Part shown: positions 19,021 through 24,582 of the stretch, piece after piece
Position numbering within the stretch: position 1 is the stretch's first letter
Layout of the letters: each line of letters starts with the position of its first letter
Origin: a virus
DNA: 24,582 nt
Reading direction: 5' to 3' (one strand)
Virus record (IMG/VR): IMGVR_UViG_3300032322_002299
Location: 1-24,582 of that record
The notes under the pieces: model-generated
Told to the model about the DNA's origin: nothing
The model's database searches: none
What the model saw: the letters and a program-made list of their open reading frames with translations, nothing else
Program-made: the position numbers and the translations under genes

Positions 19021-19329
19021 ATGAAAATTACAAATAAAAAAGAATTATTAGAAAAAGTAAAACACGATGGCATGGCTTTGCAGTATGCCAGCGACAAATT
19101 AAAAAACGATAAAGATGTTGTATTAACTGCGGTAAAACACGATGGCATGGCTTTGATGTATGCTAGTGATGAGTTAAAAAACAATAGAGGGGTTGTTTTA
19201 GAGGCGGTTATGAATTATGGTTTTGCTTTACAATTTGCTAGTGAAGAATTACGAGCAGACAAAGAAGTTGCTTTAGAAGCAATCACACAAAATTACGGGG
19301 CTGTGCAGTATGCTAACATTTTCAATTAA
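19021..19329 (+). CDS. DUF4116 repeat protein 1
   Basis: The 102-residue protein has four tandem DUF4116-type helical repeats of about 24 residues (VKHDGMALQYASDKLKNDKDVVLTAV, VKHDGMALMYASDELKNNRGVVLEAV, and so on). DUF4116 repeats occur in bacteria, protist-associated bacteria and large viruses, and are of unknown function; they form short helix pairs suited to binding partners. It begins 2 bases after the preceding gene and is the first of three such genes here. Confidence 0.85.
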   Translation: MKITNKKELLEKVKHDGMALQYASDKLKNDKDVVLTAVKHDGMALMYASDELKNNRGVVLEAVMNYGFALQFASEELRADKEVALEAITQNYGAVQYANIFN

Positions 19330-19357: not shown

Positions 19358-19903
19358 ATGACAAAAATTACATTAGAACAAGTAAAAAAAAATGGTTATT
19401 ATATAAGACTTGCTAGTAAAGAACAATTAAATGATTATGATTTACAATATGCCAGTGCAGAATTGCGAAATGATAAAAAATTTGTTTTAGCGGCAGTAAA
19501 ACAACATGGCGATGCTTTACAATATGCTAGTCTAGAATTAAAGAATGATAGAGAAGTAGTTTTGGAAGCGGTTAAAAACCATGGCGAAGCTTTGCGATTT
19601 GCTAGTCTAGAATTAAAGAATGATAGGGAAGTTGTTTTAGAGGCAGTGAGCCAAATTGGTGGGGCTTTATTCTGGGCTAGCGAAGAATTACAAAACGATG
19701 AAAAATTTGTTTTAGAGGCGATTAATAAAAATGGTCTTGCTTTACAATTTGCTAGCAAAGAATTAAGGGGAAATCGAGAAGTTGTTTTGGAAGCAATGAA
19801 ACAAAATCCCGATATTAAACGCTGTGCTTTTATTCTCTTCTATGCTACTGATGAGCTACAAAATGACAAAACAATTAATCAATTTATAAAAAATTTAAAA
19901 TAA
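19358..19903 (+). CDS. DUF4116 repeat protein 2
   Basis: The 181-residue protein has about six DUF4116-like repeats ('VVLEAVKNHGEALRFASLELKNDRE' type). Two adjacent units are almost identical in DNA sequence (TATGCTAGTCTAGAATTAAAGAATGAT-type blocks at about 19521 and 19600), which shows recent expansion. The C-terminal unit (QNPDIKRCAFILFYATDELQNDK) is divergent. Function is unknown; a binding or decoy role against host factors is speculation. Confidence 0.85.
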   Translation: MTKITLEQVKKNGYYIRLASKEQLNDYDLQYASAELRNDKKFVLAAVKQHGDALQYASLELKNDREVVLEAVKNHGEALRFASLELKNDREVVLEAVSQIGGALFWASEELQNDEKFVLEAINKNGLALQFASKELRGNREVVLEAMKQNPDIKRCAFILFYATDELQNDKTINQFIKNLK

Positions 19904-20460: not shown

Positions 20461-20952
20461 ATGAAAAAAACAAAAATAGAAATAATATTAGAACTAGTTA
20501 AGCAAGACGGTCTTAATTTGAAATATGTTAATAAAAAATTAAGGAATAATGGAACAGTAGTTTTAGCGGCAGTGAAACAAAATTATAGCTCCTTAAAATA
20601 TGCTTCCAAAGATTTACAAAACAATAAAGACATAGTATTAGAAGCGGTTCGGCAAAGTGGATATGCTTTGCTGTATACTAGTAAAGAATTAAGAAACAAT
20701 AAAGACATAGTATTAGAAGCGGTGAGACAAGAGAGTTATGCTTTACAATATGCTAGCGAAGAATTGCAAAACGATAAAGATGTTGTATTAGAGGCAGTTA
20801 GTAAAAGTGGCTCTGTTTTGATGTTTGCTAGCGATGAGTTGCGAGGAGATCGGAAAGTTGTTTTGGAAGCAATGAAACAAAATCGCTGGGTTTTAGGATT
20901 TGCAAATAAAGAATTACAAGAAGAATTAAAAAACCAATTTTATCAAAATTAA
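20461..20952 (+). CDS. DUF4116 repeat protein 3
   Basis: The 163-residue protein has about six DUF4116 repeats (VRQESYALQYASEELQNDKDVVLEAV type). Two adjacent units share nearly the same DNA (NNKDIVLEAVRQ, twice). It has its own promoter and leader hairpins, unlike copies 1 and 2, so it can be expressed separately. Function is unknown. Confidence 0.85.
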   Translation: MKKTKIEIILELVKQDGLNLKYVNKKLRNNGTVVLAAVKQNYSSLKYASKDLQNNKDIVLEAVRQSGYALLYTSKELRNNKDIVLEAVRQESYALQYASEELQNDKDVVLEAVSKSGSVLMFASDELRGDRKVVLEAMKQNRWVLGFANKELQEELKNQFYQN

Positions 20953-23302: not shown

Positions 23303-23832
23303 ATAAATTCATTTTTACTTTAAATCAAAAGCCACTTGATTTTGCCAACAATATCTATTTAGAAATAGTTAATTTAACAAAACAAAATAAAGAGTTTCAA
23401 GTGGAAATAAAATCGCTTGAAAATGCTAAAACTTACAAGCAGTTAAAAGGCATACATAAGCTTTGTGAGATATACGGCAATTATATATCAGAAAGCGAGG
23501 GGCAAGTTTTTAGTTTTGAAAATGCAAAAGAAAGGTTAAAATATGAAATTGGTTTTACAAGATTGGCAAACTATGATGAAGCTTTGGCAATTGCTTTAAG
23601 AGAAAAAGACTTTTTAAATAAAAATTTTTTTTTAAACATAGAGTTTGCAAATTTAGTTAATATATTGCAAAAAAACTATCAAGTGCCGAGATCATTTGCC
23701 GAGGCATCTCTTGAAGAGATGATGTTGTTAATTGAAAAAATACACGAACTAGGCAGGGATAGAGGTTGGCATAATTTAGTTTTAACTAGTGAAGAAACAA
23801 AAGCAATGATTAAATATTATAACGATAAATAA
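23299..23832 (+). CDS. NinB-like recombination protein (probable)
   Basis: The 177-residue protein begins inside the nuclease gene's end. The pattern SLENAKTYKQLKGIHKLCEIYGNYISESEGQVFSFENAKERLKYEIGF, then SFAEASLEEMMLLIEKIHELGRDRGW, resembles NinB: an early helical segment preceding the LK-containing helix, and a final 'S..EM...IE.I......G' motif. NinB-type proteins bind single-stranded DNA and act with phage recombinases. The usual R(S/T)..QN signature is replaced by TYKQLKG, so the call is moderate. Confidence 0.6.
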   Translation: MNKFIFTLNQKPLDFANNIYLEIVNLTKQNKEFQVEIKSLENAKTYKQLKGIHKLCEIYGNYISESEGQVFSFENAKERLKYEIGFTRLANYDEALAIALREKDFLNKNFFLNIEFANLVNILQKNYQVPRSFAEASLEEMMLLIEKIHELGRDRGWHNLVLTSEETKAMIKYYNDK

Positions 23833-23834
23833 AT

Positions 23835-24035
23835 ATGATTAACATTCTAGCTAGTACTCAAGTTTTATTTATTGGTTTAAAATTAACAAATCACATCAAT
23901 TGGAGTTGGTTTTATGTTTTATTGCCTTTAATTGTAGTATCAATAACAACAATAACTGTGCTAAAAGAGGACGAAGAGTTAAAGCAAATTGTAATTTATC
24001 TTTTGAAGAAATATTTTTCAAAAGATAAAAGATAA
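23835..24035 (+). CDS. Small membrane protein
   Basis: The 66-residue protein has a hydrophobic N-terminus (about 1-15), the motif HINWSWFYVLLPLIVVSITTITVL (about 20-43, a membrane segment) and a charged C-terminal tail (KEDEELKQIVIYLLKKYFSKDKR). Small proteins with an INWSWWWVLLPLW-like motif are common in phage early regions and have no assigned function. It is probably an inner-membrane protein. Its 3' end contains an 8-bp inverted repeat CTTTTGAA/TTCAAAAG. Confidence 0.6.
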   Translation: MINILASTQVLFIGLKLTNHINWSWFYVLLPLIVVSITTITVLKEDEELKQIVIYLLKKYFSKDKR

Positions 24036-24110
24036 AACTGCATTATTAATTAACTAAATAAAACATATAAAAACCAATTTTTTAATAATATTATAACGAT
24101 AAATAAACTA

Positions 24111-24131
24111 TGCAAACAAACTTAAAATAAT
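24111..24131 (+). other. Six-codon leader ORF or gene remnant
   Basis: An ATG in the standard early-gene start context (AATAAACT just before it) is followed by only six codons and TAA, directly upstream of P6. It may be a decayed gene start. It is too short to call a gene. Confidence 0.3.
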
Positions 24132-24154
24132 TAAAAAAATTTTAAAAAAATACT

Positions 24155-24183
24155 TGACAATTATTTTATAATAATTTAAAATA
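24155..24183 (+). promoter_or_regulatory. Promoter P6 upstream of repeat region
   Basis: TTGACA (24155-24160), 17 bases, TAAAAT (24178-24183). No gene start follows in the remaining 400 bases, so it probably drives a non-coding RNA or a gene beyond the window. Confidence 0.7.
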
Positions 24184-24189
24184 TTATAT

Positions 24190-24582
24190 AAGCTAAACAA
24201 TTTTATTGAGTTAGTTAAATTGCCTGAAAGGGCTTCATTAATCAAGCGGTTAAGTTTAGTTAATAAATTTTAATACTAAACCTCTGAGAACGAGCAAGAC
24301 TAATTACCATCATCGCTTTGTGTAAGATTAAAGATTAGTCAACAGCTAGCCTTCTGTAAAAAGGCGAGTTAGCCTTCTGTAAAAAGGTGACTCTCAATTG
24401 TCAAAAAAAATTGAGGCGGGCTTCTAGATTACCGCTTAGTAGCTAGAATATGAGTTAGTCCTTCTTGAACAAAAAGGCATTTTAAAACAGTTAGATTTCT
24501 GTAAAAAGGCAAATCGTAAATATTTAAATGGCTAATTAAATGTAGATGAGAGCTCTACTAATCGCTTTCAAGACTAATACCC
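24190..24582 (+). ncRNA. Candidate structured non-coding RNA or repeat-rich region, partial
   Basis: No frame of useful length is open. The region is made of short inverted repeats: CTAA/TTAG with CAAT/ATTG (24194-24215), GTTTAGT/ACTAAAC, GACTAAT/ATTAGTC, GCCTT/AAGGC (24349-24365), CTCAATT/AATTGAG, TTCTAG/CTAGAA and GTAGA/TCTAC. TTCTGTAAAAAGG occurs three times exactly, with a fourth variant. It is less AT-rich than the other gaps. It starts behind promoter P6, which supports an RNA. A replication origin with iterons is the main alternative. Confidence 0.45.
24349..24510 (+). repeat. TTCTGTAAAAAGG repeat family
   Basis: Copies: GCCTTCTGTAAAAAGGC (24349-24365), the same ending in T (24372-24388), a variant with CCTTCTTGAACAAAAAGGC (24460-24478) and ATTTCTGTAAAAAGGC (24495-24510). 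Most follow GTTAG or CTAG. Spacing is uneven (23, about 87 and about 33 bases), which argues against a CRISPR array. Confidence 0.85.

What the first reader, a model, noticed from the sequence alone, without database searches (positions are those of the whole stretch)
24155..24582. Promoter-driven, gene-free region of short hairpins and a repeated 13-mer
A sigma70 promoter (17-base spacer) is followed by about 400 bases without a gene but with at least six short inverted repeats and three exact plus one variant copy of TTCTGTAAAAAGG, most of which form small hairpins (GCCTT/AAGGC). The density of structure is unlike any other gap here. It could be a phage non-coding RNA (a decoy or sponge presenting AAAAGG in loops, or an anti-defence RNA) or a replication origin with iterons. 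I know no family that it matches.
Basis: partly seen in the sequence, partly recalled or inferred. Interest (0 to 1): 0.8.

Follow-up and report, generated by a model that had tools for sequence, protein, structure and literature searches.

The report
Phage array of pseudoknot-capped non-coding RNAs
The gene-free end of this phage fragment is the start of a chain of small folded RNA units, related to chains that sit among transfer-RNA genes in many uncultured phages, and its repeated 13-letter word is the core of a tiny knotted RNA that ends such units and also forms the predicted first letters of messenger RNAs in a second, unrelated phage group; no such RNA family was found in the RNA-family database.

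Summary
After a TTGACA-17-TAAAAT promoter (24154-24182) there is no gene to the contig end (24582), and TTCTGTAAAAAGG occurs three times (0.17 expected). The contig end cuts off a larger object: an array of structured RNA modules. Relatives carry the same modules mixed with real tRNA genes.

The 13-mer is the core of a 25-nt H-type pseudoknot ("P": CAG-UUA-NNNUU-CUG-UAAA-AAN'N'N'-AA). In 49 viral contigs NNN/N'N'N' are complementary in 48 of 50 copies (about 5% expected). P ends modules. Where a module begins with a second pseudoknot ("F2", not in the window), P follows it in 11 of 11 testable contigs.

Window unit A (24208-24340) is a new structured RNA: 13 of 26 pairs show compensatory changes, 0/500 shuffles as good. 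Unit B and a cut unit C follow. Only tRNA (plus one neighbouring tmRNA) matched Rfam in the arrays.

In T4-like phages the same P lies exactly 6 nt after the late promoter TAAATA, so it should form the mRNA 5' end. I therefore read P as an RNA-end or boundary element that shields or insulates RNAs (inferred, about 0.4). The modules' cargo function is unknown. Replication iterons are rejected. The RNA reading is upheld; the sponge or anti-defence reading is untested.

The parts
24154..24182 (+). sigma-70 type promoter TTGACA-17-TAAAAT; predicted transcript start about 24189
   Evidence: 76-nt block 93% identical in L005; TTGACA-type promoters precede the arrays of L007, L009, L040, L038
24208..24340 (+). 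unit A, a structured RNA module of about 130 nt (three helices, conserved AAGCGGUUAAG and UCAUCGCUU, possible long-range AAGCG/CGCUU pairing)
   Evidence: homologues in L030, L031, L034, L040, L055, L063, L064, L079, L090; 98.3% cells paired, 13 pairs with double changes, 0/500 shuffles; covariance-model hit E 1.1e-24
24343..24365 (+). P element copy 1 (H-type pseudoknot) closing unit A
24366..24388 (+). P element copy 2, head-to-tail duplicate of copy 1 (outer pair of the first helix lost)
   Evidence: 94% identical over 104 nt (with its P) to L039 and L056, where it lies between F2 and P; too few homologues for covariation
24488..24510 (+). P element copy 3 closing unit B (one mismatch in the second helix)
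24511..24582 (+). unit C, 5' part of an F1-frame module (AATCGTAAATATTTAAATGGCTAAT...), cut by the contig end
   Evidence: with P copy 3, 96% identical over 96 nt to L005 8533-8628, where the frame closes at about 8709 and is followed by tRNA-Phe; closing stems covary between phages
24036..24112 (+). non-coding remnant upstream of the promoter: a broken copy of the gene start that follows tRNA-Phe in L005 (ATG read as ATA) and a 26-nt repeat of 23813-23837
   Evidence: 96% repeat; 92% to L005 8798-8847

Best explanation
The region is the promoter-proximal part of a phage array of small structured non-coding RNAs. The window holds units A, B and the start of C with three P copies, but no F2: there unit A starts almost at the predicted transcription start. 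In T4-like phages P lies exactly 6 nt after the late promoter. INFERRED: one long transcript is made from the promoter; tRNA-processing enzymes and endonucleases cut it; P, which locks the first nucleotides of an RNA into a knot, shields RNA ends from end-dependent decay and insulates each unit, or the mRNA that often follows, from its neighbours. What the units A, B and C do inside the infected cell is not known.
For: P: 48 of 50 copies found without requiring pairing have complementary NNN/N'N'N' of seven or more kinds; pseudoknot count 96% paired, 5 of 8 pairs with double changes, 0/500 shuffles for score; first-helix swaps CTG..CAG in L060 and TAG..CTA in L065. F2: 98% paired, 4 of 8 pairs with double changes. 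Module prediction tested: a scan for F2 alone gave 12 contigs; 11 have sequence downstream and all carry P on the same strand. Unit A covariation. Array order promoter-F4-tRNAs-F1-F3-F2-insert-P repeated in many phages. 5' end: in all 12 contigs with TAAATA closely upstream of P the spacing is 6 nt, though the scan did not ask for a promoter. 31 of 60 distinct P copies have an ORF start within 75 nt downstream, mostly 22-35 nt, against 29% at random places for the whole 5-75 nt range.
Against: No RNA was measured; transcription, processing and protection are inferred. Single-sequence folding of the window region is ordinary. The first helix of P is only 3 pairs and rests on two compensatory cases, and the sequences of alignment A1 were filtered for pairing. 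P often lies between two RNA units, where either neighbour could own it. In L065 and L059 P is followed directly by a tRNA, so RNase P cutting would leave P at a 3' end. A pseudoknot at these places could equally bind a protein.
Confidence: 0.55

Rival explanations
1. P is an operator: a phage or host protein (single-strand-binding protein, ribosomal protein, or RNA polymerase as an antitermination element) binds the knot and controls translation or read-through of what follows.
For: P's loops and the UU/AA pairs are nearly invariant while three stem pairs change freely, as expected for a recognised shape. It lies 22-35 nt before many start codons, followed in the Rickettsiales-type phages by AU-rich UUAAC/UUAAA runs, like the T4 gene 32 leader pseudoknot with its UUAA(A) repeats (PMC3014915).
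Against: The genes downstream are unrelated to each other, whereas autoregulation needs one gene. In arrays P is often followed by another non-coding unit, not a gene. No binding data.
Confidence: 0.25
2. The units in the array (several carrying tRNA-like T-arm or acceptor motifs) are anti-defence decoys, baits for tRNA-cutting or RNA-guided defences, diversified by an arms race.
For: F1 and T inserts contain tRNA-like T arms inside variable bodies and stand next to real phage tRNAs; phage tRNAs have been proposed to evade host anticodon nucleases (PMC10264068). Inserts are highly variable inside conserved frames.
Against: The inserts do not match the Rfam tRNA model and none was matched to a defence target. 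No type III toxin or defence gene follows the arrays examined (one weak LeoBC match, E 3e-4).
Confidence: 0.2
3. P is a metabolite-sensing RNA (a miniature riboswitch with an A-rich third loop, like preQ1 class I in outline).
For: Small H-type pseudoknot with A-rich loop 3 in 5' leaders.
Against: No Rfam riboswitch model matches. The 3' strand of the knot does not overlap a ribosome-binding site or a terminator. It occurs in front of non-coding units and unrelated genes.
Confidence: 0.08
4. P acts as DNA: a recombination site that shuffles the modules, as attC sites do for integron cassettes.
For: Modules are mosaic between phages and P lies at their ends; folded single-stranded DNA would show the same covariation.
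Against: P's exact 6-nt spacing from T4-like late promoters fits an RNA start. Most arrays have P only once, at the array end. No matching integrase was looked for or seen.
Confidence: 0.07
5. The repeats are iterons of a replication origin.
For: Three direct copies in an AT-rich gap next to replication-type genes (Sak4-like annealing protein).
Against: Most related contigs hold a single copy, in front of mRNAs or inside tRNA arrays, with covarying stems.
Confidence: 0.02

Closest known systems
GOLLD and ROOL RNAs (large ornate RNAs of phages and prophages)
   Same: structured non-coding RNAs of unknown function near tRNA islands in phages; tRNAs sometimes lie inside the GOLLD linker (PMC12286853)
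   Different: no Rfam match; here many short units of about 60-400 nt rather than one 500-800-nt RNA; units end in a shared pseudoknot that also occurs alone at mRNA 5' ends
Phage tRNA arrays
   Same: relatives' arrays hold 1-6 tRNA genes (Met, Arg, Asn, Trp, Phe, Leu, Ser, Gln and others) in one run with the modules
   Different: much of the array is not tRNA; the window's own part has no tRNA before the contig end
T4/T2 gene 32 leader pseudoknot
   Same: H-type pseudoknot in a phage mRNA leader, followed by AU-rich UUAA runs before the start codon (PMC3014915)
   Different: other sequence and helix lengths; T4's serves one gene, P precedes unrelated genes and non-coding units
tmRNA pseudoknot PK1
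   Same: H-type knot with a UAAAAA-type third loop upstream of a reading frame (recalled, not tested by alignment)
   Different: P is free-standing; Rfam tmRNA does not match P. One phage (L080) has a true tmRNA 60 nt upstream of a P
Type III toxin-antitoxin RNA (ToxI/CptI pseudoknot repeats)
   Same: small pseudoknots, sometimes in tandem (window copies 1 and 2)
   Different: P is usually single, and no ToxN-like gene follows

Membership tests
GOLLD / ROOL ornate RNA | match to the family's covariance model | tested here: not met
   Rfam 15 at gathering thresholds on window and arrays; permissive search of one full array region and of two loci
GOLLD / ROOL ornate RNA | location near or within phage tRNA islands | tested here: met
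   relatives' arrays; in the window itself no tRNA before the cut
H-type pseudoknot (structural class) | two interleaved helices supported by compensatory changes | tested here: met
   P; second helix without filtering; first helix rests on two cases. F2:
T4 gene 32 autoregulatory pseudoknot | lies in the leader of a single-strand-binding protein gene | tested here: not met
   downstream ORFs are diverse small ORFs, no SSB family hit in ten examined
Type III toxin-antitoxin | ToxN/CptN/TenpN-type endoribonuclease gene directly downstream | tested here: not met
   ten downstream proteins against Pfam and PADLOC; the window's own downstream gene is beyond the contig end
Replication origin with iterons | direct DNA repeats conserved as an array beside a replication gene | tested here: not met
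   single copies in most relatives, RNA-type covariation
preQ1 class I riboswitch | match to the family's covariance model | tested here: not met
   no match at E up to 10 in 23800-24582
Integron attC / cassette system | integron integrase and attC core sites | not tested
   no search for an integrase was made
tRNA array | run of functional tRNA genes | tested here: inconclusive
   met in relatives; the window is cut before that part

The most novel reading that the evidence does not exclude
Phages carry a portable cassette system for non-coding RNAs. Each cassette is an RNA cargo flanked by two dedicated pseudoknots, F2 at the 5' end and P at the 3' end; cassettes are shuffled among tRNA arrays of different phages; and the same P knot has been adopted by unrelated T4-like phages as a fixed 5' cap of late mRNA. 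P would then be a general, host-independent RNA end-cap of phages.
Probability: 0.35. Interest if true: 0.9.

Novelty: categorically new. Interest (0 to 1): 0.77.

Why it matters
Several covarying RNA families absent from Rfam lie in one kind of phage locus, and one of them, a 25-nt pseudoknot, recurs in at least three phage backgrounds: Rickettsiales-associated phages, T4-like phages, and large contigs with long tRNA arrays. Such a small portable element fixed at predicted transcript starts suggests a phage way of shielding RNA ends that can be tested with a reporter in a laboratory strain. It also bears on two open questions: what the non-tRNA parts of phage tRNA arrays do, and how phages protect their RNAs in a cell whose RNA decay is high.

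Tried and rejected
Nucleotide search of the whole window against isolated phages: no match. Blast of the region and of short P queries against isolated phages gave only chance-like pieces in unrelated places (Erwinia, Leptospira and Methylophilales records looked at). Rfam at permissive threshold on the region: three chance-level hits. Minimum-energy folding: no excess stability, so not used as evidence. Host-genome origin: only 2 of 344 genomes of the order of MAG G001 carry P, both the MAGs already found, so P is phage-borne rather than a host gene. Automatic consensus folding of F3 failed because the collected set contained unrelated coding hits; F3 is described by sequence only. F1 inserts as tRNAs: T-arm-like motifs are visible, but neither ARAGORN nor Rfam calls them tRNA, so 'tRNA-like' is only descriptive. 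Literature searches found no description of P or of these arrays; the library holds no preprints and few subscription papers. No metagenome scan was available to extend the window past its end.

Full report
What was checked. The region 24155-24582 has no ORF of 60 aa or more, a TTGACA-17-TAAAAT promoter and three exact copies of TTCTGTAAAAAGG where 0.17 are expected. Folded on its own it is no more stable than shuffles (z -0.53), so whether it is structured had to be decided by relatives. The window is a linear IMG/VR fragment of a tailed phage with terminase, portal, major head protein, head protease, tail sheath and a Sak4-like annealing protein. The region is cut by the contig end.

Relatives. 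Proteins upstream of the region led to 23 related contigs. One of them, L005 (the same contig as L004 and L053), matches the promoter (93% over 76 nt) and the last 96 nt of the window (96%) and continues through a closed module to a tRNA-Phe. Others (L007, L009, L013) carry the 21-nt core AGTTAGCCTTCTGTAAAAAGG inside gene-poor stretches with tRNA genes. A scan for the 19-nt core found 35 viral contigs and three contigs of two Rickettsiales MAGs. Only those two of 344 genomes of that order carry it, so it is phage-borne. The host assignment rests on these MAG contigs alone.

The array. Marking recurring motifs in all contigs gives a common order: promoter, F4, tRNAs (Met, Arg, Asn, Trp, Ser and others), a linker CCAAAATCGTGAATA, a framed module F1 (UAAAUAUUUAAAUGG...UUUWUAAAUAUUUA), F3, F2, a variable insert, P, then a start codon or another module. 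Not every array has every part. The closing stems of F1 change in a compensated way between phages (GGCUAGUG/CACUAGC, GGUGGCAC/GUGCCAC, GGUUGCAAC/GUUGCAAC). In L079 a terminator-like inverted repeat with a T run follows P directly. The window array reads: promoter, unit A, P, P, unit B, P, unit C cut at the end. It has no F2 in front of unit A: the predicted transcript start (about 24189) lies 19 nt before the unit.

P is a pseudoknot. A scan with the three inner stem positions left free (AGTTANNNTTCTGTAAAAANNNAA) found 49 contigs with 50 copies, of which 48 have complementary NNN/N'N'N' (GCC/GGC, GAG/CTC, CAG/CTG, CAA/TTG, TAT/ATA, GCT/AGC and G-U variants); about 5% would be expected. With both helices (CAG/CUG and NNNUU/AAN'N'N') the count is 96% of cells paired, 5 of 8 pairs with double-sided changes, and 0 of 500 shuffles reaching the covariation score; slid versions fall to 33-55% paired. 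Caveat: the rows of that alignment had passed a pairing filter, so the unfiltered 48/50 is the clean test of the second helix. The first helix rests on two compensated variants, CTG..CAG in L060 and TAG..CTA in L065.

P ends modules; F2 begins them. F2 (CUCGGCACGGGUAAAGAUGAGUGC) is a second H-type pseudoknot: 98% paired, 4 of 8 pairs with double changes, with no pairing filter used in collecting it. Because F2 had been seen only near P or F1, I tested the link by an independent scan for F2. Of 12 contigs, one ends right after F2 (L088). In the other eleven P follows on the same strand within about 500 nt, including L087, where it had to be fetched and proved to be the variant CAGTTAGTCCTTCTGTAAAAAGGCAA, 27 nt before a start codon.

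Unit A. Nine phages besides the window carry it (ten copies; two rows are identical in the aligned part). With a structure drawn by inspection, 98.3% of cells pair, 13 of 26 pairs show double changes, 0/500 shuffles on every measure, and slid versions pair 25-51%. The 7-bp stem 113-119/149-155 of the alignment changes at every pair. A proposed AAGCG/CGCUU contact never varies and is therefore unsupported. A covariance model finds the window copy at 24208-24340 with E 1.1e-24. L030 holds a copy about 6 kb away from its array. Unit B is shared at 94% (104 nt including P) only with L039/L056, too few for covariation.

Second context. In twelve contigs, P follows TAAATA (the T4 late promoter core) by exactly 6 nt, and a small ORF with a Shine-Dalgarno sequence follows 22-33 nt after P. 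The scan had not asked for a promoter. One of these contigs, L066, encodes a T4-type RNase H. Late transcripts of T4-type phages start about 6 nt after TATAAATA (established knowledge), so P would begin at nucleotide +1 or +2. Bacterial 5'-end-dependent decay (RppH, RNase E) needs a few unpaired 5' nucleotides (established knowledge). This is the main reason for the end-protection reading, which is an inference.

Comparison with the known. Rfam matched nothing in the window; in the related arrays it matched only tRNAs and, in L080, a tmRNA next to P. GOLLD and ROOL are the nearest in setting (phage tRNA islands, unknown function; PMC12286853) but do not match by model and are built as one large RNA. 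The T4 gene 32 leader pseudoknot is the nearest in form and position (PMC3014915) but serves one gene. Type III antitoxins share tandem pseudoknots, but no toxin gene follows in ten cases.

Confidence. Array of structured RNA modules: about 0.95. P as an H-type pseudoknot: about 0.9. P as an RNA end or boundary element: about 0.4. Function of the cargo units: unknown. 'Categorically new' refers to architecture (pseudoknot-bracketed RNA cassettes and a shared knot at mRNA starts), judged against Rfam 15 and an open-access paper library without preprints.

Noticed in passing
window 19021-19326, 19358-19900, 20461-20949 (+): Three neighbouring phage genes made of DUF4116 repeats (Pfam PF13475, E 1e-56 to 1e-70), apparently paralogues; function in a phage unknown.
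   Followed up: partly
L080 12918-13548 (-): A phage-borne tmRNA gene (Rfam RF00023) is followed 60 nt later by a P element, then a TATAAATA late promoter and tRNA genes.
   Followed up: no
L042 1800-3923 (-), from a 174,761-bp contig: Long tRNA array with the exact P element between tRNA-Met and tRNA-Gly and several hundred bases of tRNA-like, unannotated sequence with large inserts.
   Followed up: no
L089 480-1640 (+), from a 140,400-bp contig: Several F2/P modules in a row, one with a strong terminator-like hairpin between them.
   Followed up: partly
L030 6602-6754 (+): A second copy of unit A about 6 kb from the array, without P after it.
   Followed up: no
window 24036-24112 and 23813-23837: Remnant of a gene start and a short repeat upstream of the promoter suggest a recent rearrangement of the array. 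In L031 a homologue of the 66-aa ORF at 23835-24035 lies after the array instead of before it.
   Followed up: partly
L008 32-104 (+): Rfam match to DUF3800-IX RNA in a related contig.
   Followed up: no
L006 1985-2015, L029, L031, L054 and other relatives: Gene starts in these phages are preceded by UAUUAACUUAAA-type runs instead of a Shine-Dalgarno sequence, with or without P.
   Followed up: no
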